Shown: positions 3,383 to 40,746 of the stretch, piece by piece
How the letters are laid out: each line of letters starts with the position of its first letter
Numbering within the stretch: position 1 is the stretch's first letter
Assembly (NCBI GenBank): GCA_919902505.1
Contig: CAKKRE010000047.1
Span: 1-49,272, forward strand
Reading direction: 5' to 3'
DNA length: 49,272 bases
Source of the DNA: Nitrospiraceae bacterium
GTDB taxonomy: Bacteria; Nitrospirota; Nitrospiria; Nitrospirales; Nitrospiraceae
Notes under the pieces: model-generated
Told to the model about the DNA's origin: nothing
The model's database searches: none
Seen by the model: the letters and a program-made list of their open reading frames with translations, nothing else
Made by a program: the position numbers and the translations under genes

Positions 3383-3392
3383 GTGGACAGGA

Positions 3393-3414
3393 AAGGCTCC
3401 GGTTAGGGAGCCTT
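3393..3414 (+). terminator. Hairpin after the helicase gene, weak terminator
   Basis: AAGGCTCC (3393-3400) pairs perfectly with GGAGCCTT (3407-3414) around a 6-nt loop, 11 bp after the helicase stop. No strong T-run follows, so termination may be partial. Confidence 0.4.
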
Positions 3415-3518
3415 AGACCCTGCCGGAGCTGTGCCTTAGGGCGGTCTTTGGTTGGTCCTTGGTTCGTGGGTCGATCTCACAGCCAAGGCACCACCAAGGC
3501 AGACGCAAGATAGGAATC

Positions 3519-3557
3519 GTGACAAATCTTGTCACAGCGTGACAGCCTTTTAGTCAC
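3519..3557. promoter_or_regulatory. GTGAC/GTCAC dyad pair upstream of the small gene
   Basis: GTGACAAATCTTGTCAC at 3519-3535 and a second dyad, GTGAC...GTCAC, at 3539-3557. They lie directly upstream of the ribosome site of the gene at 3587. Candidate operator or iteron sites, matched by a second pair behind the gene. Confidence 0.6.
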
Positions 3558-3586
3558 GATTTCAAACCTACATAAGGAGACCAACC

Positions 3587-3811
3587 ATGGCAAAGTCAGA
3601 AGCCGAACGACAGAGAGACCATAGGGAGAAGCAGCGGGCAGCAGTCATTGAGAAGTACGGCTCAACGAAGGAGGGTCGTGAACGGATGGGAGGTCGGATA
3701 GAGAAGCTCCTGAGAGATCACCCAAGGTATGCGTACCACATTGACCAGCTCTTGGGCAGGATCAACAGGGAGCTGAAGGGAGGGCGTGACAAAGGTTCAG
3801 TCACGGTGTGA
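3587..3811 (+). CDS. Small basic, helical protein flanked by dyads; unknown function
   Basis: 74 residues starting MAKSEAERQRDHREKQRA, with a good ribosome site (AAGGAG, about 3574-3579). It is rich in R, K and E and predicted mostly helical; residues 45-63 (HPRYAYHIDQLLGRINREL) look like a second helix. The family is not recognised. The gene is bracketed by two GTGAC/GTCAC dyads on each side, and the last pair overlaps the stop codon. This suggests a small DNA-binding protein acting on these sites (autoregulator, partition or replication-control factor), an inference from context only. Confidence 0.65.
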   Translation: MAKSEAERQRDHREKQRAAVIEKYGSTKEGRERMGGRIEKLLRDHPRYAYHIDQLLGRINRELKGGRDKGSVTV

Positions 3812-3824
3812 CAAGGGCTGTCAC
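3786..3824. promoter_or_regulatory. GTGAC/GTCAC dyad pair at the gene's 3' end
   Basis: GTGAC...GTCAC at 3786-3804 (19 bp) and GTGACAAGGGCTGTCAC at 3808-3824 (17 bp). The order of lengths (19, 17) mirrors the upstream pair (17, 19). The stop codon of the small gene (3809-3811) lies inside the last dyad. No terminator is visible here. Confidence 0.6.
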
Positions 3825-3941
3825 GATCTTGCTCAAGGTCTTCGAGTCTATTCATCTTCAGTACTCAGTCTTGCCATGAGGCCTTGGTTCTGCCTTAACC
3901 ATCTACCTTAGACCCTAGCTGATTACAGGTCTGCCTGGATC

Positions 3942-4292
3942 TCATTGTTGACAAGGAAAGGTGACCCGTAGCGCCTTCGTAACCAGGTGGCTTCCTGCCA
4001 AGTGCCATTCATCGGGATGCTCGTTCAAGTACTTCGTCACGATGGCACCGAGTTGAGAGATCGTGACGCTTTCAGGAATACATATAGAACCTCCCAGTGA
4101 ATCAGCAACTCCTGTCACGTATCCCATGAAACGTGAGGCGCTTAGATAATCAGCCTTTTCAGATCGATTAGCTTTCTCTCCTTCTTGCATCATTGGTATA
4201 AGGTTATTTCCATCGTAGAAGGCGGCTGAGGCGTCGGAGAAGGCACCGGAGATCAATGCTGCGATGGTTATTAACGCCCTTATCCCGACCAT
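3942..4292 (-). CDS. Rap1a/Tai-family exported protein
   Basis: 116 residues. The ATG at 4292 was chosen because GGAGG precedes it; the longer frame from 4304 would start inside that ribosome site. Residues 1-23 form a signal peptide ending SDASA. The rest carries the hallmarks of the Rap1a/Tai family: GYVTGVADS, then CIPESVTISQLGAIVTKYL, then HPDEWHLAGSHLV and a final FPC. Founding members are periplasmic immunity proteins against type VI secretion amidases, but many homologues stand alone. No toxin partner is visible here. It is translated from an mRNA shared with the upstream gene, whose end contains its ribosome site. Confidence 0.75.
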   Translation of the reverse strand: MVGIRALITIAALISGAFSDASAAFYDGNNLIPMMQEGEKANRSEKADYLSASRFMGYVTGVADSLGGSICIPESVTISQLGAIVTKYLNEHPDEWHLAGSHLVTKALRVTFPCQQ

Positions 4293-4294
4293 GC

Positions 4295-4558
4295 TTACCT
4301 CCAATACTCATCATCTTCAAGCAGGCGCAGACCCGCTTCTGTTATCTCTATGTTGTCGCCGGTTCGTTTGATAGATTCCCACTCAAGTAGATCACGCAAA
4401 ATAGGCGCAATGTCGCCGGTTCGGTGTAGATCGAAATGGGCATAGAGGAGATCGTAGTTTCTTGCTCCATGCTCCTTGAGATTGCGCAGAACGTCACGCT
4501 TGAGAGGGTTCTCTTTCCGTCTAGCCTTCTCGTAATTTGGTCCGTAGAACTTGGGCAT
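4295..4558 (-). CDS. Small winged-helix-like protein
   Basis: 87 residues from the ATG at 4558, which follows GGAGG at 8-nt spacing; an upstream in-frame ATG at 4612 lacks a ribosome site. The segment DVLRNLKEHGARNYDLLYAH, followed by APILRDLLEWESIKRTGD and IEITEAGLRLL, is the helix-helix-helix-wing order of a small winged-helix domain. That suggests DNA binding. Its stop is 2 nt from the start of the Rap1a-like gene, so the two are co-transcribed. It may be the regulator of the pair. Confidence 0.65.
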   Translation of the reverse strand: MPKFYGPNYEKARRKENPLKRDVLRNLKEHGARNYDLLYAHFDLHRTGDIAPILRDLLEWESIKRTGDNIEITEAGLRLLEDDEYWR

Positions 4559-4681
4559 CTCTATATCCTCCCATGAGAAACGGTGGGCGACTCTACCACA
4601 GGGGACCAACATGGGCTAGGCTCTTCAAGGAGGGCTCTGAATGCGGGCGGAAGTCAATGGGTTACGATGGGCGACATTGGG

Positions 4682-4710
4682 TTACATTTGTCAGACAAAA
4701 GTAGTACACT
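4682..4710 (+). promoter_or_regulatory. Promoter with embedded palindrome
   Basis: TTACAT (4682-4687), a 17-bp spacer, then TACACT (4705-4710) make a plausible promoter for the small gene at 4747. A perfect dyad, TTTGTC-A-GACAAA (4687-4699), sits inside the spacer and is a likely repressor site. Confidence 0.45.
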
Positions 4711-4746
4711 GGTAACACGGTCTTACTCCTGAAAGGAGCTATTCTT

Positions 4747-4917
4747 ATGGGCATGTATAGCGCCATGATGAAACAAGTACACGAACACGCTAAGAAGCTG
4801 GAGAAGTCTGGTCAGTTGGAGCGGATGTTTCAAACGCAGGAGCGGAAGCAGAACCAGCAGACGGTGTGTCCTTCTCCTCTGAAGAGAGAAGAGGGTCGCG
4901 GGCATCTCGGTAAGTAA
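4747..4917 (+). CDS. Small basic protein, convergent overlap with the next gene
   Basis: 56 residues starting MGMYSAMMKQVHEHAKKLEK, with AAAGGAGC just upstream (about 4731-4738) and a promoter with a palindrome before that. Residues 8-38 are probably helical and highly charged. No family recognised. Its last 128 nt overlap the 3' end of the opposite-strand gene at 4790-5671. The good ribosome site favours this being real, but one of the two overlapping ends could be misread. Confidence 0.5.
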   Translation: MGMYSAMMKQVHEHAKKLEKSGQLERMFQTQERKQNQQTVCPSPLKREEGRGHLGK

Positions 4918-5671
4918 TGTTAAGATTCTTGATTTCGCTGTACCTAATTAAGAAATAGTCCCCTGGCTCTATCCGTTGCCAAGAAAACGTTGGCTTCCCA
5001 TCAACCTTCCTGAATTTACTCCTCCTCGCAGCAGTAATGATCAAATCTCTTAGTGCCCCCTTCTCATCAGTGGTGAAAGCCGCGACAAGGCCCCTGTAGA
5101 GACGAGTTTTTCCTGCTTCTTCGGTTGGCTCATCGGTCAAGGCATCGACCCATACAATAATATATTTCGAAGGAACTCCCTCCAGCTGTCCGCGTCCCAG
5201 GATTGAATATATCCAATCATTTCTGAAAGCGAAAATCTTCGGGCAATGCACGTCTAGCTCAAATTCCCATACGATCCATCGAAAAAGATGTCCAAATCCA
5301 AAAGCCGCTGACAGGATAAGGACATAGTAGATGAGGAGATGGCTTTTGCTCTGATAGAAATGATCAAGAACCTCTGAAAATCGTATGTTGTAGTCAGAGC
5401 CAGTATTTGAAAACTCTCCCGCCAACATTCTAAACACGCTTTCGGTATTGAGCGCGTGATGAATGACATGGGCGTGCTGAAGCCATATAACAATTAGGAC
5501 GCCTACAATGTGAAAGGGCAGAGAGAAAATGATGGCCTTGGCTAGATCATCCGTCCAAGTTCTCTGAAGCACCTGACGAGTAAATTCATGTGCAAAGTAA
5601 CAAGCTAAGAAAATATATCCAGGCAGGGCGAGAAGAAGAAAAAGCAGAGATGTGAAGGCTATGTTAGTCAT
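4790..5671 (-). CDS. Three-helix membrane protein, DUF6338-like
   Basis: 293 residues. An N-terminal hydrophobic segment (residues about 5-27, LLFLLLALPGYIFLACYF), a second at about 45-65 (AIIFSLPFHIVGVLIVIWL) and a third at about 112-132 (LLIYYVLILSAAFGFGHLF) are followed by a soluble domain of about 110 residues that looks beta-rich, and a low-complexity Ser/Pro/Thr tail. The overall plan (short membrane part, then a small soluble domain) resembles the DUF6338 family of uncharacterised proteins often found on mobile elements; I cannot confirm this without a search. AT-richer than the core genes, in keeping with transfer. Confidence 0.65.
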   Translation of the reverse strand: MTNIAFTSLLFLLLALPGYIFLACYFAHEFTRQVLQRTWTDDLAKAIIFSLPFHIVGVLIVIWLQHAHVIHHALNTESVFRMLAGEFSNTGSDYNIRFSEVLDHFYQSKSHLLIYYVLILSAAFGFGHLFRWIVWEFELDVHCPKIFAFRNDWIYSILGRGQLEGVPSKYIIVWVDALTDEPTEEAGKTRLYRGLVAAFTTDEKGALRDLIITAARRSKFRKVDGKPTFSWQRIEPGDYFLIRYSEIKNLNITYRDARDPLLSSEEKDTPSAGSASAPAFETSAPTDQTSPAS

Positions 5672-5743
5672 ACATCCAGCCGGAAGCTACCATAGACACC
5701 CTCTTTTGGCTAGGCACACCAGTTGCGGCACAGGTCCTTGTAG

Positions 5744-5926
5744 TCAGTAATCATCCGGCCCAATCCCTTCCCCCTTCGCACACGGCGGACAGTACAACAT
5801 CTCCGCCGTCCAGATCGTCCACAGAGCGTCGTCCGTTGCATCAGCGGCCTTCTTGCCACATTCACAGCAGAACGCGCCCCATTGCTTCCGCACCAACACT
5901 GAGGCTTTCAGATGCTGAACAGGCAT
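5744..5926 (-). CDS. Small zinc-ribbon-like protein
   Basis: 60 residues from an ATG preceded by AAGGAG at 5-nt spacing. Two cysteine pairs (CCECGKK at about 20-26 and CPPC at about 46-49) are arranged like a zinc ribbon. No other domain is visible. Probably a small metal-binding accessory protein of the mobile element; no more specific role can be given. Confidence 0.6.
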   Translation of the reverse strand: MPVQHLKASVLVRKQWGAFCCECGKKAADATDDALWTIWTAEMLYCPPCAKGEGIGPDDY

Positions 5927-5987
5927 ATCAACTCCTTCAACTAAGGTTCAACATAAGGCAGTACCGCTCCCTTGCGGTCGGTCTGGC

Positions 5988-7502
5988 TTAAAACGTCACC
6001 TTCTCTACTGCTTCCTTCAGCGCCTTTACAGTAAACGCATCCTCCACATGCACATACGTTTGATTCTGTGCCGAGCCGGGGAGCGCATGCCCGAGAAGCC
6101 GATGCCGAATCTCCGACTGTACCCCGGCCTTCATCAACTCCGTAGCCCAGAAGTGCCGACAGCTATGCAGAGTTAATAAAGGATCGGAGATACCAGCCGT
6201 CCGCATCGTCCTCTTCACGGTCATAGACAGATCCCACGTGCGAGAGAGATCAGGGAAGAGGCGCGCCTTCGCTCCGGCCTTGCGTCGAGCCTTCACAAAG
6301 TCCATGAACCCGAGCCCGAGCAGGGTGGAAGACAGCGGCACCTTGCGGGCGGAGTTCGTATTCTTCAGGAGCAGATCCCGCGTCTTGTCCTCGTAGAGGT
6401 CAATGAAGTCGATCCCATCCCGCTCCTTCACTTGATCCACGCACAGCGGGAACGCTTCGCCGCCTCTCATGCCGGTATGCATGACCAACACGGTCCCCCA
6501 GAAGCGGGAATCTCTCTTTCGTGTCTTGAGCAGCGTGTCTAGTATCGCCCGCATCTGTTCCGTGGTGAACGGCTTCCGGACATTTGATTCCATCTTCTGT
6601 TGCCGTGCCGCCACACTCAGGCCTTCTAATGGGTTCTTTTCGAGCTGGTCATGCGTGACCATCCACCGGAAGAAATGCTGGAGGTAGGACAGCTTTTTGT
6701 TGAATGAACGGGCCGACACCTTGGCGAGTTGCTGGTCCTTCCACTTCGTGCACGTCGCCTTCACGAAGTCCCGTCGTACCTTCACCGTCCCCCAGTCGAG
6801 GCCGGACATCTGAAGGAACTCATTAAGGGTCTGTTCAATCTCCCGCTGTGTGGCCGGTCGCCGGTAGGCATGTTGCGACATGTACGAGTCAAAGGCTGTG
6901 CGGAGGTCAACCGAAGGCACCACTAAGGCAGCGGGAGCCACGACCGGCGACGGAGCCAACGCCGCAGACGAGGCCGGTGTGTAGCGCCCATCCATCCGGC
7001 GTATTTCTTCCTCAAACAGAGACACGCGGGCCTTCAACAACTCACGACAGAGACGCCTGTACTCTCCGGACGCTCGACCCATCTTCAAGCCGTGTTGTTG
7101 GACCAAGCCGTCCGCCAAGCTCGTCACCTGCCATTGTTTATTTCCGATTAAGGCTTCGTGGGCTTCCTCCAGTAAGTCCCCGTACACGTCTGTCTGGTCT
7201 TCTACGTCCTCAGGATCGAAGGCACCGCTCTCTATTTTGGCCTGTTCGGTACGGTCAAGTTCTGCCTGTTTCCATTCCTCTACGAGTCGCCCTAAGTCCT
7301 CTCGGATTTGACTCACCACAGCCTCCTTTGGTTGCACTCTTTTAGCAAAAGCGGTAGCAGTCGCCAAGGCTTCAAGTTGTTTCGACCTTACCACGGCAAC
7401 CTCACGGTCCCTAGTCGAGAGCGAGTACCAGAGCTGGTTTGCTCCAATACGGAAGCGGATATGGTACATTGAGCCGCGTTGGACAACCGTTGGTTTCAGC
7501 AT
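5988..7502 (-). CDS. Tyrosine recombinase (phage-type integrase)
   Basis: 504 residues from the ATG at 7502 (MLKPTVVQRGSMYHIRFRIG); the open frame continues upstream but would overlap the recG start. The C-terminal catalytic domain shows the expected residues: Arg in HTGMRGGEA, the His-x-x-Arg box in LHSCRHFWATELM, the GH of LLGHALPG, and the nucleophile Tyr in QNQTYVHV. The middle contains a core-binding (SAM-like) domain with FDSYMSQHAYRRPATQREIE. It would integrate and excise the mobile element by site-specific recombination. It sits at the element's edge and is divergent from recG, with only 27 bp between the starts. No excisionase is recognised. Confidence 0.9.
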   Translation of the reverse strand: MLKPTVVQRGSMYHIRFRIGANQLWYSLSTRDREVAVVRSKQLEALATATAFAKRVQPKEAVVSQIREDLGRLVEEWKQAELDRTEQAKIESGAFDPEDVEDQTDVYGDLLEEAHEALIGNKQWQVTSLADGLVQQHGLKMGRASGEYRRLCRELLKARVSLFEEEIRRMDGRYTPASSAALAPSPVVAPAALVVPSVDLRTAFDSYMSQHAYRRPATQREIEQTLNEFLQMSGLDWGTVKVRRDFVKATCTKWKDQQLAKVSARSFNKKLSYLQHFFRWMVTHDQLEKNPLEGLSVAARQQKMESNVRKPFTTEQMRAILDTLLKTRKRDSRFWGTVLVMHTGMRGGEAFPLCVDQVKERDGIDFIDLYEDKTRDLLLKNTNSARKVPLSSTLLGLGFMDFVKARRKAGAKARLFPDLSRTWDLSMTVKRTMRTAGISDPLLTLHSCRHFWATELMKAGVQSEIRHRLLGHALPGSAQNQTYVHVEDAFTVKALKEAVEKVTF

Positions 7503-7529: not shown

Positions 7530-10070
7530 ATGCCACGTCCTGAATCCGCCGACTCTCACGATCCGTTCCAAGCCTTCCTGCATCGTGTAACCAGACCGAT
7601 TGAATTTGCTTGTCGCGATGCCTACGCCCATCTCTCGACGGTCAGGAATCTTGACCGTTTTGTGTCGGAACAGGTGATCGGCACGCTCGGTGAGCGAGTC
7701 TATCCGCGAGCGCTGGAGACGGAACTGATCTCACTACGCAACCTGTTTGTCGACTTCCACACTCGGCTCACACCCCTCGAACAACAGGATCGGCTCACGA
7801 AAGCGCTGGCGCTGCTCAGCCGCCTACAAGGGGGCGCGCGAGCGGTGAGTCAGCCGATGGGGTCTCCGAAGGGGAACCAAATACAACCTCCACCGGTTCG
7901 GTCCAGCCCTGCCAGACCGCTGTGGGAGTTATCGATTCAATATGCAAAAGGAGTTGGTCCCAAACGAACCCTTTTGCTGGAGCGGCTGGGCGCGTGCACG
8001 GTCGAGCAGGCCTTGTGGACGTTACCATGGCGTTATGAAGATCGTTCGGTCATGACGCCGGTGGCCGAACTTGTGCCGGGGGCTACACGGAGCGTTTGCG
8101 GCGTGATCACTCGGGCAGAGGCAACGCGTGCGCGCGTTCGCCGGCTGTCGATTCTCGATGTGGCCGTCCAGGACGCAACGGGGACTGTGCACGCGGTGTT
8201 TTTTAATCAACCTTACTTGGAAGATGTGTTGAAGGAAGGCCTGCGGGTCATGATGTCCGGGCGGGTGGCGGCCGGCCGGGGTGGGTGGACAGATGTGCGG
8301 TTGGAGGCGACGCAATTTGAGGTCCTGAGCGGCGGCGAGGATGAGTTACTCCATGTGGGGCGCATCGTTCCGATCTACCATGAGACGAAGGGGTGGACAT
8401 CGCGCCAGATGCGTGCCTTGTTGCAGGGGTTGCTGGCGGAGTATGGGGCTGGCATGGAGGAGGTACTGCCTCTGTCTGTCCGTGCGCGCCATCGGCTACC
8501 GCCTATTGGCGAGGCGATTCAGCAGGTGCATTTTCCTCTGCCGAAGACGGATCTGGCCGCTCTGGATCAGGGGGTGACGTCTGCCCACCGCCGATTGGTA
8601 TTCGAAGAACTGTTGCTGCTGCAAGCGGCCATGGTGCTTCGCCAGCGGGAGATGAAGGAAGAGCCCAAAGCATTTCGGTTCAATCCTCATGTGTCGCAGC
8701 TGAAGCAACTGGCGAAGGTCCTGCCCTTTACGCTGACTTCCGCGCAGGAACGCGTGTTTCGTGAGATTCAGGCCGATATGGTGAGTTCGCGGCCGATGAA
8801 TCGCCTGGTGCAGGGGGATGTCGGGTCCGGGAAGACCGTCGTGGCGCTGCATGCCCTGGTGATGGCTTGTGGATCGGGCTGCCAAACGGCGTTGATGGTC
8901 CCTACAGAAATTCTGGCCGAACAGCACTATCTGAATCTCGCCCCCTTGTTGGAGGCCGTGGGATTGAAGGCAGTGCTTCTGACCAGCGGCAGGAAGGCAA
9001 AAGACCGAAACGAGACGCTGAAGCAGTTGGAGTCCGGCGCTGCGCAGGTCGCGATCGGCACCCACGCATTGATTCAAAAGAAGGTGCGGTTCGCTCAGCT
9101 TGGCCTGGTGATTGTCGATGAACAGCATAAGTTCGGCGTCCTGCAAAGGAAGACGTTGCTGGAGAAAGGATATCGACCGGACGTGCTGGTGATGACGGCG
9201 ACGCCGATTCCGAGAACTCTGGCCATGACCGTTTATGGAGACTTGGATGTATCAGTGATCGATATGTTGCCGCCGGGCCGCAAACCGGTGCGAACATTAC
9301 TCTATACGGACGGGCAACGTCACAAGACCTGGCAGCTGGTGGGGGATGAGTTGAAGGCCGGGCGCCAGGTGTATATCGTCTATCCGCTGGTCGAGGAATC
9401 CGAGAAGGTGGATCTCAAGGCGGCCATTCAGGGTGCGGAACATCTGCAGCGCGAGATCTTTCCTCAGGCGCGGGTCGGGTTGCTGCACGGCCGGCTTCCG
9501 ACCGCGGAAAAAGAGCGTACCATGGCGGCGTTCAAGGCCGGGACAATTCAGGTCCTCGTGGCCACAACCGTGATTGAGGTCGGGGTGGACGTGCCGAACG
9601 CGACGGTTATGGTCATCGAGCATGCCGAACGATTCGGATTGGCGCAGTTACATCAATTGCGAGGGCGTGTCGGTCGTGGAGCTCAACAATCGCTTTGTAT
9701 CCTGATGGCCACGTATCTTGCGCGAGAGGGCAGGGCACGAGTCAGTCGCGACGGTCGGCCGGAGGAGAATGCCTCCAGTGCACAGCAACGGTTGGCTGCG
9801 CTCGTGAATTCAAACGATGGATTTGTCATTGCCGAAGAAGACCTCCGGATCAGAGGCCCCGGTGAATTTCTGGGGCTGCGTCAGTGGGGGGTGCCGGAGT
9901 TTCGAGCTGCGAATCTGGTGCGGGACGCGCAATTGTTGGAGCAGGCCAGGCAGGAAGCCCTGATGTTGCTGGAGCAGGATCCGGGCCTGGCGCTGCCTCA
10001 GCACCAGGCGTTCAAGGCTGCCATGTTCCGGCGCTGGCGGGGCAAGCTGGCCTTGGGAGATGTGAGCTAG
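7530..10070 (+). CDS. recG: ATP-dependent DNA helicase RecG
   Basis: 846 residues. RecG remodels stalled replication forks and Holliday junctions. Visible parts: an N-terminal extension of about 120 residues, the wedge/OB domain (about 150-320), motif I GDVGSGKTVV near residue 430, the DEQH box near 530, TATPIPRTLAM, and motifs V/VI (VIEVGVDVPN, HQLRGRVGRG). The RecG signature GPGEFLGLRQWG lies near the end. It is longer than E. coli RecG (693) because of the N-terminal extension, which is common outside Proteobacteria. The start abuts the integrase of the mobile element, so the promoter or even the first codons may derive from the insertion. A palindromic element follows the stop. Confidence 0.95.
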   Translation: MPRPESADSHDPFQAFLHRVTRPIEFACRDAYAHLSTVRNLDRFVSEQVIGTLGERVYPRALETELISLRNLFVDFHTRLTPLEQQDRLTKALALLSRLQGGARAVSQPMGSPKGNQIQPPPVRSSPARPLWELSIQYAKGVGPKRTLLLERLGACTVEQALWTLPWRYEDRSVMTPVAELVPGATRSVCGVITRAEATRARVRRLSILDVAVQDATGTVHAVFFNQPYLEDVLKEGLRVMMSGRVAAGRGGWTDVRLEATQFEVLSGGEDELLHVGRIVPIYHETKGWTSRQMRALLQGLLAEYGAGMEEVLPLSVRARHRLPPIGEAIQQVHFPLPKTDLAALDQGVTSAHRRLVFEELLLLQAAMVLRQREMKEEPKAFRFNPHVSQLKQLAKVLPFTLTSAQERVFREIQADMVSSRPMNRLVQGDVGSGKTVVALHALVMACGSGCQTALMVPTEILAEQHYLNLAPLLEAVGLKAVLLTSGRKAKDRNETLKQLESGAAQVAIGTHALIQKKVRFAQLGLVIVDEQHKFGVLQRKTLLEKGYRPDVLVMTATPIPRTLAMTVYGDLDVSVIDMLPPGRKPVRTLLYTDGQRHKTWQLVGDELKAGRQVYIVYPLVEESEKVDLKAAIQGAEHLQREIFPQARVGLLHGRLPTAEKERTMAAFKAGTIQVLVATTVIEVGVDVPNATVMVIEHAERFGLAQLHQLRGRVGRGAQQSLCILMATYLAREGRARVSRDGRPEENASSAQQRLAALVNSNDGFVIAEEDLRIRGPGEFLGLRQWGVPEFRAANLVRDAQLLEQARQEALMLLEQDPGLALPQHQAFKAAMFRRWRGKLALGDVS

Positions 10071-31220: not shown

Positions 31221-31352
31221 GATCCTCGACATTTAACATGCCATCGTCTATCAAGGTGAACAGCAGGTTTTTCCGACCTGTCGCTCAGCCTGGCCGCCGG
31301 CGTACATGGCGTAATTCTCGGACCGAACGGTGCTGGAAAATCGACCCTCCTG
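31221..31352 (+). pseudogene. Truncated copy of the 5' end of the ABC ATPase gene at 32295
   Basis: This stretch matches 32300-32432 closely, including the P-loop coding sequence (GGACCGAACGGTGCTGGAAA here). One base is missing in the run CAGGTTTTTCCG (CAGGTATTTTCCG in the intact gene), causing a frameshift, and the similarity stops abruptly at TCCTG. The result is a non-functional remnant. It lies upstream of two paralogous lipoprotein genes, so the locus has been duplicated. Confidence 0.85.
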
Positions 31353-32298: not shown

Positions 32299-33080
32299 CG
32301 ATCATCGAGATTCAGCATGCCACGGTCTATCGAGGTGAACGGCAGGTATTTTCCGACTTGTCGCTGAGCTTAGCCGCCGGCGTCCACAGCGTGATTCTCG
32401 GACCGAATGGCGCGGGAAAATCGACCCTCCTGAAGCTCTTCTCCATGGAAATCCATCCTGTACCCCGCGACCACACGAGGCTCCGCCTGTTCGGCGAAGA
32501 GCAATGGAATGTGTGGGACCTGCGACGGCACTTGGGGGTCGTCTCGCATGACTTGCAGCGCCACTATCTGGACAACGCCTACGGCATCAACGTGATCCTC
32601 TCCGGGTACTATGCGAGCGTGGATACCTATGAGCACCAGGCGTTCGATGATGAACAATGGGTGCGGGCGGCGAAGATCATGGAGGATCTCGGCATCGGCC
32701 CTCTGCAGGAGCGCCGCTTCGGTGACATGTCCACCGGTGAGCAGCGGCGGTTTCTTCTTGGGCGAGCGCTGGTCCACGATCCGCCGGTCCTCGTGTTGGA
32801 CGAACCGACCAGCGGGCTCGATCTCAAATCCTGCTTCCAGTATTTAGACCTCGTGCGTGCGCAGATTCACAAGGGCAAGACAGTCGTCCTCGTCACCCAC
32901 CATCTGCACGAAATTCCGCCGGAGATCGATCGAGTGATCTTTCTCAAAGGAGGGAAAGTCGTGGCCGACGGTCGGAAATCTGCACTCCTGTCCAACGACC
33001 ACATCAGCACCCTCTTCGACCGCCCCATCGTGCTCGCTCAAGCCAACGGCTGGTATCAAGCCCTGCCTGGCCTGTCGTAA
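32295..33080 (+). CDS. ABC-type ATPase subunit
   Basis: 261 residues starting at a GTG that overlaps the preceding stop. Walker A GPNGAGKSTLLKL near residues 36-48, signature MSTGEQRRFLLGRALV, Walker B PVLVLDEPTSGLD, then the H-loop in LVTHHLHEIP. It resembles the molybdate- or iron-type cytosolic ATPases (ModF-like). There is no permease or binding-protein gene next to it, so its partner is encoded elsewhere. The truncated copy at 31221 shows that the gene has been duplicated at least once. Confidence 0.88.
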   Translation: MTIIEIQHATVYRGERQVFSDLSLSLAAGVHSVILGPNGAGKSTLLKLFSMEIHPVPRDHTRLRLFGEEQWNVWDLRRHLGVVSHDLQRHYLDNAYGINVILSGYYASVDTYEHQAFDDEQWVRAAKIMEDLGIGPLQERRFGDMSTGEQRRFLLGRALVHDPPVLVLDEPTSGLDLKSCFQYLDLVRAQIHKGKTVVLVTHHLHEIPPEIDRVIFLKGGKVVADGRKSALLSNDHISTLFDRPIVLAQANGWYQALPGLS

Positions 33081-34124: not shown

Positions 34125-34246
34125 AGGGAACCGTTCCTTTCGTGAGGATGTCGTCAGAGCTGCAGTATAGCCTAGAGGCAGGAGTGGATGAAATGTGGTC
34201 GTGCGTCCAGTGGCGATGAACGTGAGGTCCAGGGGAGATTCCGACG

Positions 34247-34275
34247 TGGCATCCTCACGCGTTGGGCGTTATACT
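34247..34275 (+). promoter_or_regulatory. Promoter that would give a leaderless mRNA
   Basis: TGGCAT (34247-34252), a 17-bp spacer and TATACT (34270-34275), with the ATG only 6 nt after the -10. Transcription would start at or within a base or two of the start codon. Confidence 0.45.
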
Positions 34276-34281
34276 GATCGC

Positions 34282-34842
34282 ATGCTGATGCAGCTACGCC
34301 AATCTCTGGTGATAGGGCTCCTGGCTGTGACCGCCGGGTGTGCCACGTCGGTCATTCCCGAATCTCTTGAACCACAGGTTGATAAGGCCGTGACGTTCAG
34401 CCAGGTGTTGGAATCCCCCGACTCGTACCGTGGGAAGGTCGTGGTATGGGCCGGCGAAGTGCTCATAGCCAGAGCCCTGAAGGGCGGCACGCAATTAGAG
34501 GTGCTCCAGCTCCCCTTAGATGACGAGCAGGGGCCGGTTATCGACCGCATGGAATCCAAAGGGCGGTTCCTCGCATTACAGAAAGAGTCTCTCGATCCGG
34601 CCACGATGACGGACGGCACCAGGGTGACGATTGTCGGCGAAGTAACGGGGGCGTCGGTCGAAAAAATGGATGAGGCGGACTATCGCTTTCCGACGCTGGA
34701 GATCAAACATCTGCATCGATGGACTTCCCGGCGAGTGGATGACCGTCGGGTGATCGGACCTTGGTGGAACGTGTTCGGCGGGGTCGGTATCGGGGGAGGC
34801 GGTCGCAGCGGCGGCGGGGTCAGCATCGGCACCGGGTTCTAG
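34282..34842 (+). CDS. Slp-family outer-membrane lipoprotein
   Basis: 186 residues from the ATG at 34282; the upstream open frame is not protein-like. Lipobox VTAGC near residue 18 follows a signal peptide (LVIGLLAVTAGC). The Slp family (starvation-inducible lipoprotein) is suggested by FSQVLESPDSYRGKVVVWAG, TRVTIVGEVTG and LEIKHLHRWTSR. The C-terminus is Gly-rich (GVGIGGGGRSGGGVSIGTGF). No Shine-Dalgarno precedes the ATG, in keeping with the leaderless promoter. Confidence 0.8.
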   Translation: MLMQLRQSLVIGLLAVTAGCATSVIPESLEPQVDKAVTFSQVLESPDSYRGKVVVWAGEVLIARALKGGTQLEVLQLPLDDEQGPVIDRMESKGRFLALQKESLDPATMTDGTRVTIVGEVTGASVEKMDEADYRFPTLEIKHLHRWTSRRVDDRRVIGPWWNVFGGVGIGGGGRSGGGVSIGTGF

Positions 34843-35053: not shown

Positions 35054-37741
35054 ATGGCGACAATCTATCTCTCCTCCACCTACGAAGACCTGAAAGACTA
35101 CCGCCGTGCTGTGGTTGAGGCACTTCGACAAAGTGGGCACCATGTCATCGGGATGGAGGATTACGTCGCGACCCACCAACGGCCCGTCGATGAATGCTTC
35201 ATGGACGTGGCAAAGGCCGAGCTCTATGTGGGACTGTTCGCGTTTCGCTATGGGTACGTTCCGCCGCCCCACCACAAGAATCCCAATGGTTTGTCGATCA
35301 CCGAGTTAGAGTTCCTGCATGCCGAAAGCCTCAAGAAGCCCTGTCTCACATTCATAGCCAAACGCGACGTGGGTATTCCGCTGGATCTTGTGGATGCCTA
35401 CACGGGCGATGGAGACAAAGGTACCCAAATTGAACGGCTGCGCCAATACTTGCTCACAGAGAAGCTGGCCAGTGAGTTTTCGCAGCCGTACAGGCTCGCC
35501 GCCCTCGTGCTCGCGGCGGTCACGAAGCATCTGGAGACGAAGGAGCAACCTGAATCACCGGTCATTCAAGCGCCAGCCTCTCCGGCGACTGTTACCTGGG
35601 ACATCAAGGAGAAGGGCTCGCCCTATCCTGGCTTGTTGCACTTCACGCGCAAGTATGCGCCGGTGTTCTTTGGGCGGGATGCGGAGATCTGCGAGATCCT
35701 CGACCGCCTGCGTGGGCCGGAAGGACGCTTCATCCTTATCAGCGGCGATTCGGGAGTCGGAAAGTCCTCGGTTGTCGATGCCGGGATCTTACCAAAACTT
35801 GAACAGGGGGGATTGCCGGGTGGGGAGACCTGCGAATGCGTCCGGATGTTGCCGAGTCAGGGCCAGCAACCGTGGCATGCTCTCCTGGCGGCGCTCGGCT
35901 CCCTGGCGACCCGGGCAGGGCTGAGGCCGGATAAGGTCATCGAAGACCTGACTCGGAACCCGGACACCTTGCCGGGCTATCTCATGCGCATCGTCAAGGA
36001 TGGTACGGGGCATCAGGCGCTGGTGCTCTTCCTCGATCAAATGGAAGAGCTCTTTACGGCTCAGGACCCAGTCACGGCCAATCAGTTTCTCGCGGCGCTG
36101 TATCGAACGGCGCAAGAAAAGGTTGTCTGGGTCCTGGCAACTATCCGTAGCGACCAGCTGCATCATTGCCATCGGCATCCTGACATGGTGACGGTGCTGC
36201 GCGGTTCGGGGCACTATCCCGTCGGGCCTGTCGAATCGTTCATGCTGAACGATATGATCGTGAAGCCGGCTCGCTGTGCCGGACTGCGTGTCACCGACCG
36301 GCTGGCTCGCCGAATCGTCGAGGAAACGGGGACGAAGGAAGGAAATCTGCCTCTCCTGGGGTTTGTATTGGAGAAACTCTTCGAGAAGCGGACGGATCAT
36401 GAGCTTAGAGAGGATCAGTACCAGCAACTGGGAGGAGTGGCCGGAGCGATCGGCGAGCACGTCAAAACGGTTGAAGCAAGAATCGAGCAGGCGGTGGCGA
36501 TAAAGGCTGATCGCCTCTTACCTGACATCTTCCAGGCCTTGGCAAGAGTCCAGAAAGAAGAGGGGATCCCCACCCGCAATCGCCCGCTGTTGACCGACTT
36601 CACCGGGTCTCACCGGACGGTTGTTGACCTGTTAATAACCGAGCGCCTTCTCCGCACAGAAGGGGAGGGCGAGGCTGCGACGGTGTCACTGAGCCATGAA
36701 CGGCTCTTCGAAGCCTGGCCCGCGCTCAAAGACTATGTCGACACACACAAGAAGGTCCTGGTCGATCGTACGCTCCTGGAGAGCCGTGCCAGGAAATGGG
36801 CGGAGATAGGGAAGCCCTGGTTGAGTGGCCTGGCGTCTGGGCGCGAATACAAGGACTTTTTGCGGGCTGGGGGAACTGCCACCTCAGTGATGAAGAACTA
36901 CCTTGCGGCGAGCCGCAGAGCCCAATGGCTCTTCAAGGGAGCCGTGGCATTGGCACTCTTGATGGTGGCTGTCACGACCTGGCTGTGGCAGAAGGGCTAT
37001 AACCTCGATCAGGCTGGAATCAAAGTCCAATCGCTCTTTGTCGGCATTCATGTTGACCCGGACAAAATGGGATGGATGAAACAGATTGATGGCGGCTCCT
37101 TTAAGCGGGGGGACGTTGAGCGGTTGGGAGAACCGTGGCGCAACCCCGTTCGGCCGGTCACGATCAAGCCCTTTGCCATGGGGATATACGAAGTCACCTT
37201 CGAGGAGTATGACAGATTTGCCATTGCTGAAGGAAAACCATTGCCGGCTGATCAGGGTTGGGGGCGTGGCCGCCAGCCGGTGATCAACGTCTCCTGGGAA
37301 GATGCGAAGGCCTATGCCCTGTGGCTCTCTCAAGTGACCGGCAAGCGCTATCGACTCCCAACGGAATCGGAATGGGAATATGTGGCACGAAGCGGACCGA
37401 AGCAGGAGGTTTGGGCAGGCACCATCGAGGAATCCAAACTTGGGGAGTATGCGGTCTTCGTCAATAACTCAAAAAACCGCACGGCAGAAGTCGGCGGGAA
37501 ACAGAAAAACGATTTCGGTTTCTATGACCTGAGTGGGAATGTCTGGGAATGGGTCGAGGATTGTTTGCATGGGACTTACGATGGCGCGCCGAATGATGGC
37601 TCGGCTTGGTTAGAGACAGACGGCGGCGATTGCGGCGTGCGCGTGATCCGGGGCGGTTCCTGGTACAGCGGTCCGGTGCACTTGCGTGCCTCGAACCGGG
37701 GCAGCGACATCGGTTTCCGTCTTGCCCAGGACCCTCCGTAA
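35054..37741 (+). CDS. DGR target: DUF4062-nSTAND1 NTPase-TM-FGE/C-type-lectin receptor-like protein
   Basis: 895 residues from the ATG at 35054; a TTG at 35045 is less likely. Order: DUF4062 (about 2-165, IYLSSTYEDLKDYRRAVVEA); nSTAND1 NTPase (about 190-610) introduced by SPYPGLLHFTRKYAPVFFGR, with P-loop GDSGVGKSS (231-239) and Walker B LVLFLDQMEE (Asp328); one membrane helix (about 629-646) preceded by SRRAQ, so the N-terminus should be inside; then a formylglycine-generating-enzyme/C-type-lectin domain (about 676-895; LPTESEWEYVARSG, GNVWEWVED, GGSW). The last 30 residues are encoded by the variable repeat. Variable positions are Tyr871, Ser872, Gly873, Val875, His876, Gly883, Ser884 and Asp885. 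This predicts a receptor with a diversified outer domain and an NTPase signalling part. Confidence 0.9.
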   Translation: MATIYLSSTYEDLKDYRRAVVEALRQSGHHVIGMEDYVATHQRPVDECFMDVAKAELYVGLFAFRYGYVPPPHHKNPNGLSITELEFLHAESLKKPCLTFIAKRDVGIPLDLVDAYTGDGDKGTQIERLRQYLLTEKLASEFSQPYRLAALVLAAVTKHLETKEQPESPVIQAPASPATVTWDIKEKGSPYPGLLHFTRKYAPVFFGRDAEICEILDRLRGPEGRFILISGDSGVGKSSVVDAGILPKLEQGGLPGGETCECVRMLPSQGQQPWHALLAALGSLATRAGLRPDKVIEDLTRNPDTLPGYLMRIVKDGTGHQALVLFLDQMEELFTAQDPVTANQFLAALYRTAQEKVVWVLATIRSDQLHHCHRHPDMVTVLRGSGHYPVGPVESFMLNDMIVKPARCAGLRVTDRLARRIVEETGTKEGNLPLLGFVLEKLFEKRTDHELREDQYQQLGGVAGAIGEHVKTVEARIEQAVAIKADRLLPDIFQALARVQKEEGIPTRNRPLLTDFTGSHRTVVDLLITERLLRTEGEGEAATVSLSHERLFEAWPALKDYVDTHKKVLVDRTLLESRARKWAEIGKPWLSGLASGREYKDFLRAGGTATSVMKNYLAASRRAQWLFKGAVALALLMVAVTTWLWQKGYNLDQAGIKVQSLFVGIHVDPDKMGWMKQIDGGSFKRGDVERLGEPWRNPVRPVTIKPFAMGIYEVTFEEYDRFAIAEGKPLPADQGWGRGRQPVINVSWEDAKAYALWLSQVTGKRYRLPTESEWEYVARSGPKQEVWAGTIEESKLGEYAVFVNNSKNRTAEVGGKQKNDFGFYDLSGNVWEWVEDCLHGTYDGAPNDGSAWLETDGGDCGVRVIRGGSWYSGPVHLRASNRGSDIGFRLAQDPP
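37639..37729 (+). repeat. DGR variable repeat (VR)
   Basis: 91 bp at the 3' end of the target gene. Compared with the template repeat at 39286-39376 it has 81 identical positions and 10 differences. All 10 fall at template adenines (7 A to G, 2 A to T, 1 A to C). The differences hit 8 codons in two clusters. The 3' 20 bp (ending CTTGCCCAG) are unchanged and would hold the initiation-of-mutagenic-homing region. Confidence 0.95.
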
Positions 37742-37854
37742 CCCTGTGCCCTTTGCTCTTTTACCCTTTGCGTCTTCAATATTCTCCGTGACTCCAGTGT
37801 CTGAATGGGTTTAAGAGTTCGGGTGCGTGCAACTGAAGAGTGAAGGGGATGCCT

Positions 37855-38214
37855 ATGGCCGCCTCCACCGTGCCCCAGGCCGTGCAATCGTGCCACGAGT
37901 TGCTGCTCTGGCTGATTCCACAGCTCGACAAGTTTCCACGAGTGCGCCGGTTCACGCTGGGGGAGCGCATCGAAGCCGGGTTGCTCGTCGTGCTGGAGTT
38001 GTTGGTTGAAGCGGCCTACAGCCGCAACAAGGAGGCTCCGTTGCGGCGCGCGAATGTGCAACTGGAGGTTGTGCGCCACTTCTGGAGACTGGCTCATGAA
38101 CTAAAAGTACTAGCGACACGCCAGTACGAGCACGGAGCCACACTCATCGATAACCTGGGCCGGCAGATCGGCGGCTGGCTCCGCAGTCACTCTCCGGCTC
38201 AGCCGAACCCATGA
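37855..38214 (+). CDS. avd: Avd-like DGR accessory protein
   Basis: About 119 residues. Entirely helical and basic, with helices at about 6-24, 37-52, 60-85 and 90-110 (for example RRANVQLEVVRHFWRLAHEL), matching the four-helix-bundle accessory variability determinant. Avd forms a pentamer that binds the reverse transcriptase and the template RNA and is needed for cDNA synthesis. The start is at 37855 or 37849; AAGGGG (37843-37848) favours 37855. The stop overlaps the RT start (ATGA), so the two proteins are made in coupled fashion. Confidence 0.85.
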   Translation: MAASTVPQAVQSCHELLLWLIPQLDKFPRVRRFTLGERIEAGLLVVLELLVEAAYSRNKEAPLRRANVQLEVVRHFWRLAHELKVLATRQYEHGATLIDNLGRQIGGWLRSHSPAQPNP

Positions 38215-39293
38215 CACGCATCGGTGGCATCTGGGGTCAGCTCACGAGTTTTGAACATCTCCTGCGGGCCTACCGCACAGCCCGGCGGGGAAAACGCGGG
38301 CGACCCGGCGTGGCCGAGTTCGGGCTGAATCTCGAACACGAGCTGCTTACTCTGCAACGCGCACTGCGAGAAGGAACGTATCGACCCGGCAATTACCGCC
38401 TCTTCACGATCTACGAGCGCAAGCCGCGCGTCATCGCTGCGGCGCCGTTTTGCGACCGGGTCGTGCACCACGCGATCATGAATTTGATCGAACCGCCGTT
38501 GGATCAGACCTTCATTGCGGATTCCTACGCTTGCCGTCATGGCAAGGGCGTCCATGCAGCCGTGGACCGCTATCAAGCCTGGGCGCAAACCTATCGATAT
38601 GCCTTGAAAATGGACGTGCGGCAGTACTTTCCTTCCATCGATCACGGTCTGCTCAAGGAGAAGCTTCGTCGACGGATCAAAGACCCGCGTGTCTTGGATT
38701 TGCTGGATCGCATCATCGAAGGCTCTCCGAGAGGGGACCCCGAGCCTTGCTACTTACCCGGTGATGACCTCTTCACGCCGTTCGAAAGACGCGCTGGCAT
38801 CCCCATCGGCAATTTGACGAGTCAGTTCTTCGCCAATCTGTATCTCGACGACCTCGATCACGACATCAAGCAGGTGTTGCGCGTCCGGCCCTACCTGCGC
38901 TACGTGGATGATATGGTGGTGCTGGACGATGATAAGGCCCGACTTGCCGACATTCGTGACGCCGTTCGGGAGCGGCTCGTAGCCGATCGGCTCAGACTCC
39001 ATCCCTGCAAGGCGCATGTGACGCGTGTGATCGATGGGCTCAATCTTCTCGGCTACATGGTATATCCGAACCAGCGTCGGTTGCGAAACGATAACGGGCA
39101 CCGCTTCGCCCGCAGACTTCGCGCAATGGCGAAGGCCTATCGAGCTGGGCGTCTGGACTGGGCCGACGTCGCGGCCTCGATTCACAGTTGGGTCGGCCAC
39201 GCGAAACATGCCGACACGGAAGGCCTTCGGCGGGCGATCTTCTCCCAGGCTGTGTTCATCAGGGGAACGGGCCAAGAGACGGCGAGCGCGTGA
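38211..39293 (+). CDS. DGR-type reverse transcriptase
   Basis: 360 residues. Copies the template RNA into adenine-mutated cDNA. Visible motifs: the first catalytic Asp in KMDVRQYFPSIDH (Asp135), the DGR-typical IPIGNLTSQFFAN (about 197-209, in place of the QGxxxSP of other reverse transcriptases), and YVDD at 231-234. A thumb region follows (LHPCKAHVTRVIDGLNLLGY). The length fits DGR RTs, which lack RNase H and maturase domains. The last 8 nt overlap the template repeat. Confidence 0.95.
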   Translation: MTRIGGIWGQLTSFEHLLRAYRTARRGKRGRPGVAEFGLNLEHELLTLQRALREGTYRPGNYRLFTIYERKPRVIAAAPFCDRVVHHAIMNLIEPPLDQTFIADSYACRHGKGVHAAVDRYQAWAQTYRYALKMDVRQYFPSIDHGLLKEKLRRRIKDPRVLDLLDRIIEGSPRGDPEPCYLPGDDLFTPFERRAGIPIGNLTSQFFANLYLDDLDHDIKQVLRVRPYLRYVDDMVVLDDDKARLADIRDAVRERLVADRLRLHPCKAHVTRVIDGLNLLGYMVYPNQRRLRNDNGHRFARRLRAMAKAYRAGRLDWADVAASIHSWVGHAKHADTEGLRRAIFSQAVFIRGTGQETASA

Positions 39294-39376
39294 TCCGGGG
39301 CGGTTCCTGGAACAACAATCCGGAGAACTTGCGTGCCTCGAACCGGAACAACAACATCGGTTTCCGTCTTGCCCAG
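39286..39376 (+). repeat. DGR template repeat (TR)
   Basis: 91 bp beginning inside the RT stop region. It holds 20 adenines, 18 of them in the codon-aligned AAC/AAT/GAG/GAA-type positions (GGAACAACAATCCGGAGAAC). Read in the VR frame it gives GGSWNNNPENLRASNRNNN: asparagine codons, which when mutated at both As reach 15 amino acids and no stop. This is the master copy for VR. Confidence 0.95.
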
Positions 39377-39408
39377 TCCGCCCGCACGGCCAGTGGCCGG
39401 TCCCGGAG

Positions 39409-39432
39409 CCGGCCTGTTCACGGACAGGCCGG
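39409..39432 (+). ncRNA. Stable hairpin just downstream of TR
   Basis: CCGGCCTGT (39409-39417) pairs perfectly with ACAGGCCGG (39424-39432) around a 6-nt loop. It lies about 33 nt after the TR. In other DGRs the RNA just past the TR is structured and primes or anchors reverse transcription; this hairpin is the best candidate for that role here. It could also be the RNA's end. Confidence 0.5.
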
Positions 39433-39617
39433 GTGAGGCAGCGGGTGTCCATGAGCCTGTTTCCCGGCCTCCCATCGAAACGGGAACGCCGAATAGAGGG
39501 CCTGGGGTGACGCGTTCGGGGCTGGTAGGCAATGCCGAAGGCCCCGACGCTGATTTCCCACCGTGTGATCGCGACTATTGGTGAGATAAGGCGTGAGCCG
39601 CTCCGCACAGCATTATT

Positions 39618-40484
39618 TTATAACCGGCTATCGGCGAAGCTGTTGCAGACTGCGGGATCGCCGCTTTGCAGCCCTCGACGGAGCCAGGTCATGCGTTGTT
39701 CGGATGACCCGTGGGTCCAACTTTCCGGTTGCACGTGACCTTGCCCCATCTTCTGGAGTCGATCATCGCCGATGGCCGCGGCGGCTCGTAGCCCTTCCTC
39801 GAAATCGCCGGGCTCGATCAGGTTGCGGTTGTGTTGGGCATGATAGCCCCAGACGCCGGCAAAACAATCGGCCTGCAGTTCCATTCGCACTGACAGCGCA
39901 TTACGCTCCGTGGTCGAGGCACGTTGCTGCAGCCGGGTAATTTTTTCGGCGATGCCAAGCAGGTTCTGTACATGATGGCCGATCTCGTGTGCGATGACAT
40001 AGGCTTGCGCGAAGTCGCCCGGTGCGCCGAGCCGTTGGGCCATCTCGTTGAAGAAGGAGAGGTCCAGGTAGACCTTGTGATCGCCGGGACAGTAGAACGG
40101 GCCCACGGCGGACGAGGCGGTGCCGCAGACGGAGCGCACCGCGCCGGTGAACAGCACCATCTGGGGATTTTCATACGTGCCGCCCAATCGGGGGAGCAGG
40201 ACCCGCCAGGTGTCTTCGGTGTCGGCCAACACCACGGAGGCAAATTTACCGAGGCCGTCGCGCGGTGCGTCCTTCGGACCCGAACGCTCCGGTTCCGGTG
40301 GCGCGGTGATCTCCTGAACGCCGTTCAGCATGTTGAGTAGTGTCAGGGGATTGGTCCCGGTCAAGAAACTCACGGCGAGGACGAGCACGATGCCGCCTAG
40401 TCCCAGACCCATACCGGATTTGGCCGCCCCCATCCCACGACGATCTTCGATGTTCTGGCTCTCGCGTTGACCTTCCCATCGCAT
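39618..40484 (-). CDS. Neutral zinc metallopeptidase, YpfJ-type
   Basis: 288 residues from the ATG at 40484, preceded by GGAG. Starts MRWEGQRESQNIEDRRG, the usual beginning of this family; residues about 32-50 form a membrane helix (LGLGGIVLVLAVSFLTG). The zinc site is HEIGHHVQNLL. The C-terminal part (MELQADCFAGVWGYHAQ) supplies the third metal ligand. It is an inner-membrane-anchored protein with the peptidase domain outside. Substrates are unknown for the family. Confidence 0.9.
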   Translation of the reverse strand: MRWEGQRESQNIEDRRGMGAAKSGMGLGLGGIVLVLAVSFLTGTNPLTLLNMLNGVQEITAPPEPERSGPKDAPRDGLGKFASVVLADTEDTWRVLLPRLGGTYENPQMVLFTGAVRSVCGTASSAVGPFYCPGDHKVYLDLSFFNEMAQRLGAPGDFAQAYVIAHEIGHHVQNLLGIAEKITRLQQRASTTERNALSVRMELQADCFAGVWGYHAQHNRNLIEPGDFEEGLRAAAAIGDDRLQKMGQGHVQPESWTHGSSEQRMTWLRRGLQSGDPAVCNSFADSRL

Positions 40485-40746
40485 GGCAGGGCTCCTTGTT
40501 GAACATCCGGGTGTGCGACCGACCGACGAGGAGTGTGAGGGGTCGGGCCGATGGAACCACATTTGGCGCCATTGAGCAAGCCGGGGGTGTCCCTAGCGTA
40601 CAGTACGCACGCAACGCGTGCCCTTACTGTCTGGGTGCCGGATTGAGCGGCGCGTTCGAGCCTGCGGCCTCTGTGATCGCGGCCGGTGGGCTGTCGCACG
40701 TTGACGCAGTGGGTCGGTCTGTCCCGGGTGCCCGACATAATCTGAC

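What the first reader, a model, noticed from the sequence alone, without database searches (positions are those of the whole stretch)
37639..39376. Diversity-generating retroelement with an intact VR/TR pair
The target gene's 3' end (VR, 37639-37729) and the template after the RT gene (TR, 39286-39376) are 91 bp each and differ at 10 positions. All 10 are adenines in TR, and none of the 71 non-adenine positions differ. Between them lie an Avd-like gene and an RT with the DGR-type IPIGNLTSQ and YVDD motifs. This is the complete signature of a functional mutagenic retrohoming system. The adenine-only pattern suggests that VR was rewritten since it was last identical to TR.
Basis: partly seen in the sequence, partly recalled or inferred. 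Interest (0 to 1): 0.96.

Follow-up and report, generated by a model that had tools for sequence, protein, structure and literature searches.

The report
Self-mutating immune-type receptor in Nitrospira
This is a genuine and recently active diversity-generating retroelement, a known kind of system that keeps rewriting a few letters of one gene; here that gene encodes an immune-type receptor of a nitrifying bacterium, and fingerprints left in the template and its copy show that the rewriting really happened.

Summary
Confirmed. The VR/TR pair is real and slightly longer than reported: 97 bp, 11 mismatches, all at TR adenines. Avd and the RT are real, and the RT groups with DGR RTs, not group II introns.

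The window belongs to a Nitrospira-like genome. The target is DUF4062 (TIR-like NADase family) - nSTAND1 - probable TM helix - FGE/C-type-lectin domain. That is the STAND-sensor class already reported as DGR-diversified (PMC10907252), so this is a new member of a known kind.

What the tools add is evidence of activity:
(1) TR and VR share a 24-bp deletion found in none of 13 other TRs.
(2) Every VR with an intact RT frame matches its own TR at the 14 fixed columns where TRs differ (2-11 mismatches to other TRs). The one VR beside a frameshifted RT has drifted at 17 non-A sites.

Less expected features:
- a covarying structured RNA 3' of TR, not in Rfam;
- a 32-nt pyrimidine-rich element right after VR, unique in the genome and conserved in 12 loci, where BPP-1 has a hairpin;
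- out-of-frame VRs in 5 of 14 related loci against 1 of 109 pairs elsewhere.

The cassette sits in a site (Slp / zinc peptidase) that is empty in most of the genus.

Defence-sensor function is inferred, not shown.

The parts
35054..37741 (+). DGR target gene: DUF4062 (35063-35323) - nSTAND1 (35621-36811) - probable TM (36929-36985) - FGE-sulfatase/C-type lectin (37082-37726) with VR at its 3' end
   Evidence: Pfam hits nSTAND1 1.8e-82, FGE-sulfatase 9.7e-45, DUF4062 2.7e-20; hydropathy peak at residues 629-647; FGE/TvpA fold
37633..37729 (+). Variable repeat (VR), in frame, stop codon ends 12 nt after it
   Evidence: 97 bp, 11 mismatches to TR, all at TR adenines
37740..37771 (+). Conserved pyrimidine-rich element directly 3' of VR (AACCCTNTGCNCTTTGNNCTTTNACCCTTTGC), candidate target-recognition sequence
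   Evidence: 12 loci, mean identity 85% against 30% in the next 32 nt; single copy in the genome; no hairpin
37849..38214 (+). Avd accessory protein
   Evidence: NF033474 96.7 bits (cut-off 80), bAvd 2.2e-17, phrog_3206 7.5e-21
38211..39293 (+). DGR reverse transcriptase, IPIGNLTSQ and YVDD intact; overlaps avd by 4 nt and TR by 14 nt
39280..39376 (+). Template repeat (TR); 24-bp in-frame deletion relative to all other TRs, between 10-nt repeats AACCGGAACA (single remaining copy 39341-39350; VR counterpart 37694-37703)
39377..39569 (+). Conserved structured RNA 3' of TR; predicted to pair back to the 3' end of TR (39366-39379); probably the 3' part of the TR transcript
   Evidence: RNAalifold plus covariation controls, covariance model hits beyond its training set; no Rfam family
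34195..34842 (+). Left flank of the insertion site: Slp outer-membrane lipoprotein
   Evidence: Pfam Slp 3.4e-36; synteny
39618..40562 (-). Right flank of the insertion site: neutral zinc metallopeptidase
   Evidence: Pfam Zn_peptidase 1.1e-110; synteny

Best explanation
A chromosomal DGR of the cellular, Avd-containing type. The transcript running through avd-RT into TR and a structured 3' RNA would be copied by the RT-Avd complex into cDNA with errors at template adenines, and this cDNA replaces the VR of the gene 1.6 kb upstream. SHOWN by sequence comparison: VR has been overwritten by TR in this lineage (shared 24-bp deletion, concerted evolution, A-only mismatches). INFERRED: the copying chemistry (from BPP-1). 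INFERRED: the diversified C-type-lectin domain is the ligand sensor of a STAND receptor; ligand binding drives nSTAND1 oligomerisation and activates the N-terminal DUF4062 TIR-like NADase, depleting NAD+ in an abortive, defence-type response. A single predicted TM helix between STAND and sensor would put the sensor outside the cytoplasmic membrane. My split: DGR 0.98; active in this lineage 0.93; sensor of a defence-type receptor 0.65; NADase output 0.5.
For: A-only mismatches. RT, Avd and tree. Shared 24-bp TR/VR deletion against 13 intact-length TRs. Own-TR matching at 14 variable non-A columns: 8 mismatches in all, every one from the locus with a frameshifted RT, against a permuted mean of 50.6; none of 100,000 permutations as low. 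A second lineage (G173: TR in L054, VR in L097) shares a 3-nt insertion in both repeats. Target domains, FGE/TvpA fold. DUF4062 shown to be a TIR-like NADase in antiphage defence (PMC13174449). STAND-CLec DGR targets proposed as antigen sensors (PMC10907252).
Against: No population data: current activity is not shown. The deletion cuts the repertoire from about 10^16 to about 10^10.6 protein variants and removes a loop that all compared CLec domains keep; AlphaFold confidence is poor there, so the sensor could be impaired. BPP-1's post-VR hairpin is absent. Neither defence nor NADase activity was tested, and PADLOC has no model hit for the target.
Confidence: 0.8

Rival explanations
1. The DGR was active until recently but is now silent or declining in this lineage; the TR deletion is an early step of decay, as in relatives that lost RT, TR or both.
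For: Decay is common nearby: L057 RT frameshifted with 17 non-A VR differences; L049 YVDD to YVDY; L052 TR overwritten by VR-like sequence; G013 keeps only the target and a truncated avd.
Against: In the window RT, Avd, TR, 3' RNA and VR frame are all intact, and 0 of 71 non-A sites have drifted.
Confidence: 0.2
2. VR and TR are kept alike by ordinary gene conversion, and the A differences reflect selection on exposed residues rather than error-prone reverse transcription.
For: One relative (L052) shows VR-like sequence at the TR site, so conversion in either direction can occur.
Against: In loci with an intact RT frame nearly all substitutions are at template A's (0 or 1 non-A difference per locus), and homogenisation fails where the RT is broken.
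Confidence: 0.03
3. The diversified domain is not a defence sensor but serves kin recognition, or recognition of surface or nutrient ligands, on the cell envelope.
For: Predicted TM places the CLec domain outside; PMC10907252 itself lists kin recognition as an alternative.
Against: TIR-like or TIR effector and STAND domains in the window and relatives are typical of abortive defence.
Confidence: 0.25

Closest known systems
Thiohalocapsa PB-PSB1 DGR 6 and related clade 5D STAND-NTPase DGRs (PMC10907252)
   Same: nSTAND1 plus C-terminal FGE/CLec domain carrying VR, adjacent DGR RT; proposed antigen sensor
   Different: Here one target, DUF4062 as N-terminal domain instead of EAD8, a predicted TM helix between STAND and sensor, Nitrospira host. 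Whether the RT falls in clade 5D was not tested against that tree.
Bordetella phage BPP-1 DGR (Avd-TR-bRT, mtd)
   Same: Avd, RT related to bRT, A-only TR/VR differences, CLec target fold (Z 9 to Mtd)
   Different: Order here is target-avd-RT-TR (TR after RT, overlapping its stop) instead of TR between avd and RT; no post-VR hairpin; cellular STAND target rather than a tail fibre
Treponema denticola TvpA DGR
   Same: FGE-type CLec fold with VR (2y3c, Z 17.2, rmsd 3.4 over 199 residues)
   Different: TvpA is a surface lipoprotein without STAND or DUF4062 domains (own knowledge); here the VR loop is 8 residues shorter than in the CLec domains compared
Swarozyc DUF4062 antiphage system (PMC13174449)
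   Same: Shares the DUF4062 domain, shown there to be a TIR-like NADase
   Different: Swarozyc uses a fixed auxiliary domain and is activated by the phage portal; here the sensor is a diversified CLec on a STAND receptor

Membership tests
Diversity-generating retroelement | Near-identical TR/VR with mismatches confined to template adenines | tested here: met
   11 of 11 mismatches at TR A over 97 bp
Diversity-generating retroelement | RT of the DGR clade | tested here: met
   Tree split from group II RTs, SH-aLRT 100; best PDB hit BPP-1 DGR RT 8ub7 (that 8ub7 is the BPP-1 RT is own knowledge, the table says 'Reverse transcriptase'). Retron RTs were not in the tree; the retron model scored far below its cut-off
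Diversity-generating retroelement | Accessory protein (Avd) in this subtype | tested here: met
   NF033474 above its cut-off
Diversity-generating retroelement | Target with a CLec-fold variable domain | tested here: met
   FGE-sulfatase 9.7e-45; TvpA and Mtd matched by fold
Diversity-generating retroelement | Information moves from TR to VR | tested here: met
   Shared 24-bp deletion and own-TR concordance; evolutionary, not experimental
Diversity-generating retroelement (BPP-1 type) | Hairpin/cruciform just downstream of VR for target recognition | tested here: not met
   No stable hairpin in 4 loci, z 0.06 to 0.83; a conserved linear element lies there instead. Known from BPP-1; not required of every DGR
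Diversity-generating retroelement | Mutagenic retrohoming observed in cells | not testable with these tools
   Needs cultures or reads
STAND NTPase conflict system with diversified sensor | N-terminal effector, central STAND, C-terminal diversified sensor in one protein | tested here: met
   DUF4062, nSTAND1, FGE with VR
STAND NTPase conflict system with diversified sensor | Anti-invader activity | not testable with these tools
   No experiment possible
DUF4062 TIR-like NADase (Swarozyc) | Conserved catalytic glutamate | tested here: inconclusive
   A conserved SITELE(F/Y) motif is present in the intact DUF4062 copies, but it was not aligned to the proven E97 or E1008

The most novel reading that the evidence does not exclude
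In Nitrospira-type DGRs coupled to cell-death receptors, out-of-frame VRs are a selected, reversible OFF state: variants that recognise self are silenced by retrohoming slips, and the next round of retrohoming from the intact TR restores a fresh sensor. In this family target choice uses a conserved linear pyrimidine-rich element 3' of VR instead of a hairpin.
Probability: 0.15. Interest if true: 0.8.

Novelty: new member of a known kind. Interest (0 to 1): 0.5.

Why it matters
DGR activity is usually argued from one VR/TR snapshot. Here a shared deletion, concerted evolution over nine loci and a broken-RT control give phylogenetic evidence of TR-to-VR copying in an environmentally central nitrifier genus whose DGRs are barely described in the papers I could search. 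It also yields two testable parts (a conserved 3' RNA and a post-VR element) and a natural series of intact, decaying and empty alleles at one chromosomal site.

Tried and rejected
Rfam for the 3' RNA: no hit. Stability of the window's 3' RNA alone is not unusual (z -0.54); only the comparative evidence supports it, and the long-range helix to the TR 3' end has no both-sided covariation. Post-VR hairpin: not found. Remnants of the cassette at empty sites: none by RNA model (one chance-level hit, E 0.43) or by DNA outside G013 and short flank matches. A second TR/VR pair or remote VR in the genome: none. PADLOC: RT hits are generic, target none. Viral contigs: RT relatives at most 44% identical; plasmids: no target relative above 60% identity; so no sign that this cassette rides on a phage or a sequenced plasmid. 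The FGE model is from only 9 sequences (mean pLDDT 68) and its VR loop (residues 206-215) is below 50, so I draw no conclusion on whether the shortened loop folds. A first indel scan counted alignment run-offs past the repeat end as frameshifts; replaced.

Full report
OBSERVATION. The genome (G000, 4.24 Mb, window = contig C47) has no other TR or VR copy. The nearest named relatives by RT are Nitrospira MAGs.

GENES. Target 35054-37741: DUF4062, nSTAND1, one hydrophobic helix (residues 629-647), FGE-sulfatase/CLec domain whose end is the VR. No Cys lies in the VR segment, so FGE-type catalysis is unlikely (sequence; the place of the FGE cysteines is from own knowledge). Avd passes the NCBIfam equivalog cut-off. 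The RT is closest to the BPP-1 DGR RT among solved structures (7.7e-49; group II 4.2e-20) and falls with 34 other DGR RTs, including BPP-1, apart from six group II RTs (SH-aLRT 100). The RT stop codon lies inside TR, so TR begins within the 3' end of the RT gene.

ACTIVITY, LINE 1: A SHARED DELETION. Thirteen other TRs at Nitrospira-order loci carry a 24-nt stretch (AACAGGAACAACNCCGACAACCGG or close variants) that the window lacks in both TR and VR (one of the 13, L052, is itself partly overwritten by VR-like sequence). The junction is exactly what deletion between two 10-nt copies of AACCGGAACA gives. The window TR keeps all its adenines while VR does not, so the simplest order is deletion in TR, then copying into VR. 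Genome G173 shows the same with a 3-nt insertion in both repeats. The deletion lowers the predicted repertoire from about 10^16 to about 10^10.6 protein variants and shortens a loop kept by CLec domains of other phyla. Literature on BPP-1 notes in-frame slips within AAC repeats (PMC12875486).

ACTIVITY, LINE 2: CONCERTED EVOLUTION. Nine loci have both repeats in the alignment. At 14 never-A columns where TRs differ, each VR beside an RT with an intact reading frame matches its own TR without exception and others at 2-11 mismatches. The sum over own pairs is 8, all from L057, whose RT is frameshifted; the permuted mean is 50.6 and none of 100,000 permutations is as low. L057's VR has 17 non-A differences in all. 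In the window, all 27 non-A columns that vary among TRs agree between VR and own TR, including one state (column 19) found in no other TR. Ordinary gene conversion does not explain the A-only mismatches.

RNA 3' OF TR. About 190 nt after TR are conserved in 12 loci and fold with 55 consensus pairs; 97.6% of cells pair, 8 pairs change on both sides (shuffles 4.3), slid controls 0-2. The model finds the element directly after the TR in four loci outside its training set: L062 (3.5e-37), L026 (1.1e-5), L058 (1.8e-5), L024 (0.0025) (E-values are rough). A long helix joins it to the TR 3' end, reminiscent of BPP-1's priming region (own knowledge), but that helix lacks both-sided covariation, so priming is only an idea.

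ELEMENT 3' OF VR. A 32-nt pyrimidine-rich sequence at 37740-37771, starting in the stop codon, is kept at 85% mean identity in 12 loci against 30% for the next 32 nt, occurs at that place only in the loci held and once in the whole genome. BPP-1 needs a hairpin there (PMC3240598); none is seen here. A target-recognition role is inferred from position.

SITE AND HISTORY. In most of 29 congeneric genomes Slp and the zinc peptidase are neighbours, mostly about 0.1-0.9 kb apart. The window and G001 hold the cassette between them, G014 holds avd-RT-TR beside the peptidase, and G040 (another genus) holds one there too. G013 holds a target with in-frame VR and a truncated avd, RT and TR gone: a frozen sensor. 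I cannot tell repeated gain from repeated loss. N-terminal modules differ between related cassettes: DUF4062-STAND, TIR with STAND or alone, trypsin-like, ankyrin (named by eye except for the window).

FRAMESHIFTED VRs. With a scan that asks for good matches on both sides of a gap, 5 of 14 Nitrospira-order pairs (L047, L049, L051, L055, L089) have an indel in VR that breaks the frame, against 1 of 109 elsewhere (L031, another CLec target); Fisher 5.2e-5. Caveats: many of the 109 are near-copies from one phage group, shared ancestry is ignored, L049's RT is mutated at YVDD, and these are mostly MAG consensus sequences. The window's own VR is in frame. Reversible silencing of a self-reactive suicide receptor is an attractive idea, not a result.

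FUNCTION. STAND-CLec targets of DGRs have been proposed as antigen sensors (PMC10907252). A 2026 preprint reports DUF4062 as a TIR-like NADase in antiphage defence (PMC13174449). Together with the domain order this makes a diversified receptor with NAD+-depleting output the best reading; it remains inference. That a DUF4062-STAND-CLec DGR target has not been reported before I cannot claim; supplementary tables were not readable.

VERDICT. Ordinary in kind (a cellular STAND-sensor DGR), unusually well supported as active in its recent past, with three side features worth following.

Noticed in passing
L047, L051, L049, L055, L089, L031 (VRs): VRs with 1-2 nt indels that break the reading frame while TR stays intact; enriched in Nitrospira-order loci (5 of 14 against 1 of 109).
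   Followed up: partly
L212 (G013:C51), 1717-6187: Orphan DGR target: in-frame VR, truncated avd, no RT or TR, and a duplicated 3' fragment of the zinc peptidase gene upstream of the target; suggests loss of the DGR after insertion.
   Followed up: partly
L052 (G040), 8943-9080: TR site carries a hybrid: TR-like 5' half, VR-like 3' half and VR-type flank; template apparently destroyed by recombination.
   Followed up: partly
L049 (G001), RT: Catalytic YVDD reads YVDY; VR has one non-A change and a 1-nt deletion.
   Followed up: no
L059 (G135), about 0.6-15 kb: At least 11 FGE/CLec segments around one DGR, several with A-biased mismatches to one TR: a possible multi-target array.
   Followed up: no
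G000:C82, 24070-24288 and 28162-28470: A weak DUF4062 match and a sub-threshold Avd-like match about 4 kb apart, without a detected DGR RT.
   Followed up: no
window 31269-31352 and 32349-32432: 84-bp direct repeat at 87% identity; the second copy lies in an ABC-transporter ATPase gene and includes a Walker A-like segment: probably a tandem gene duplication.
   Followed up: no
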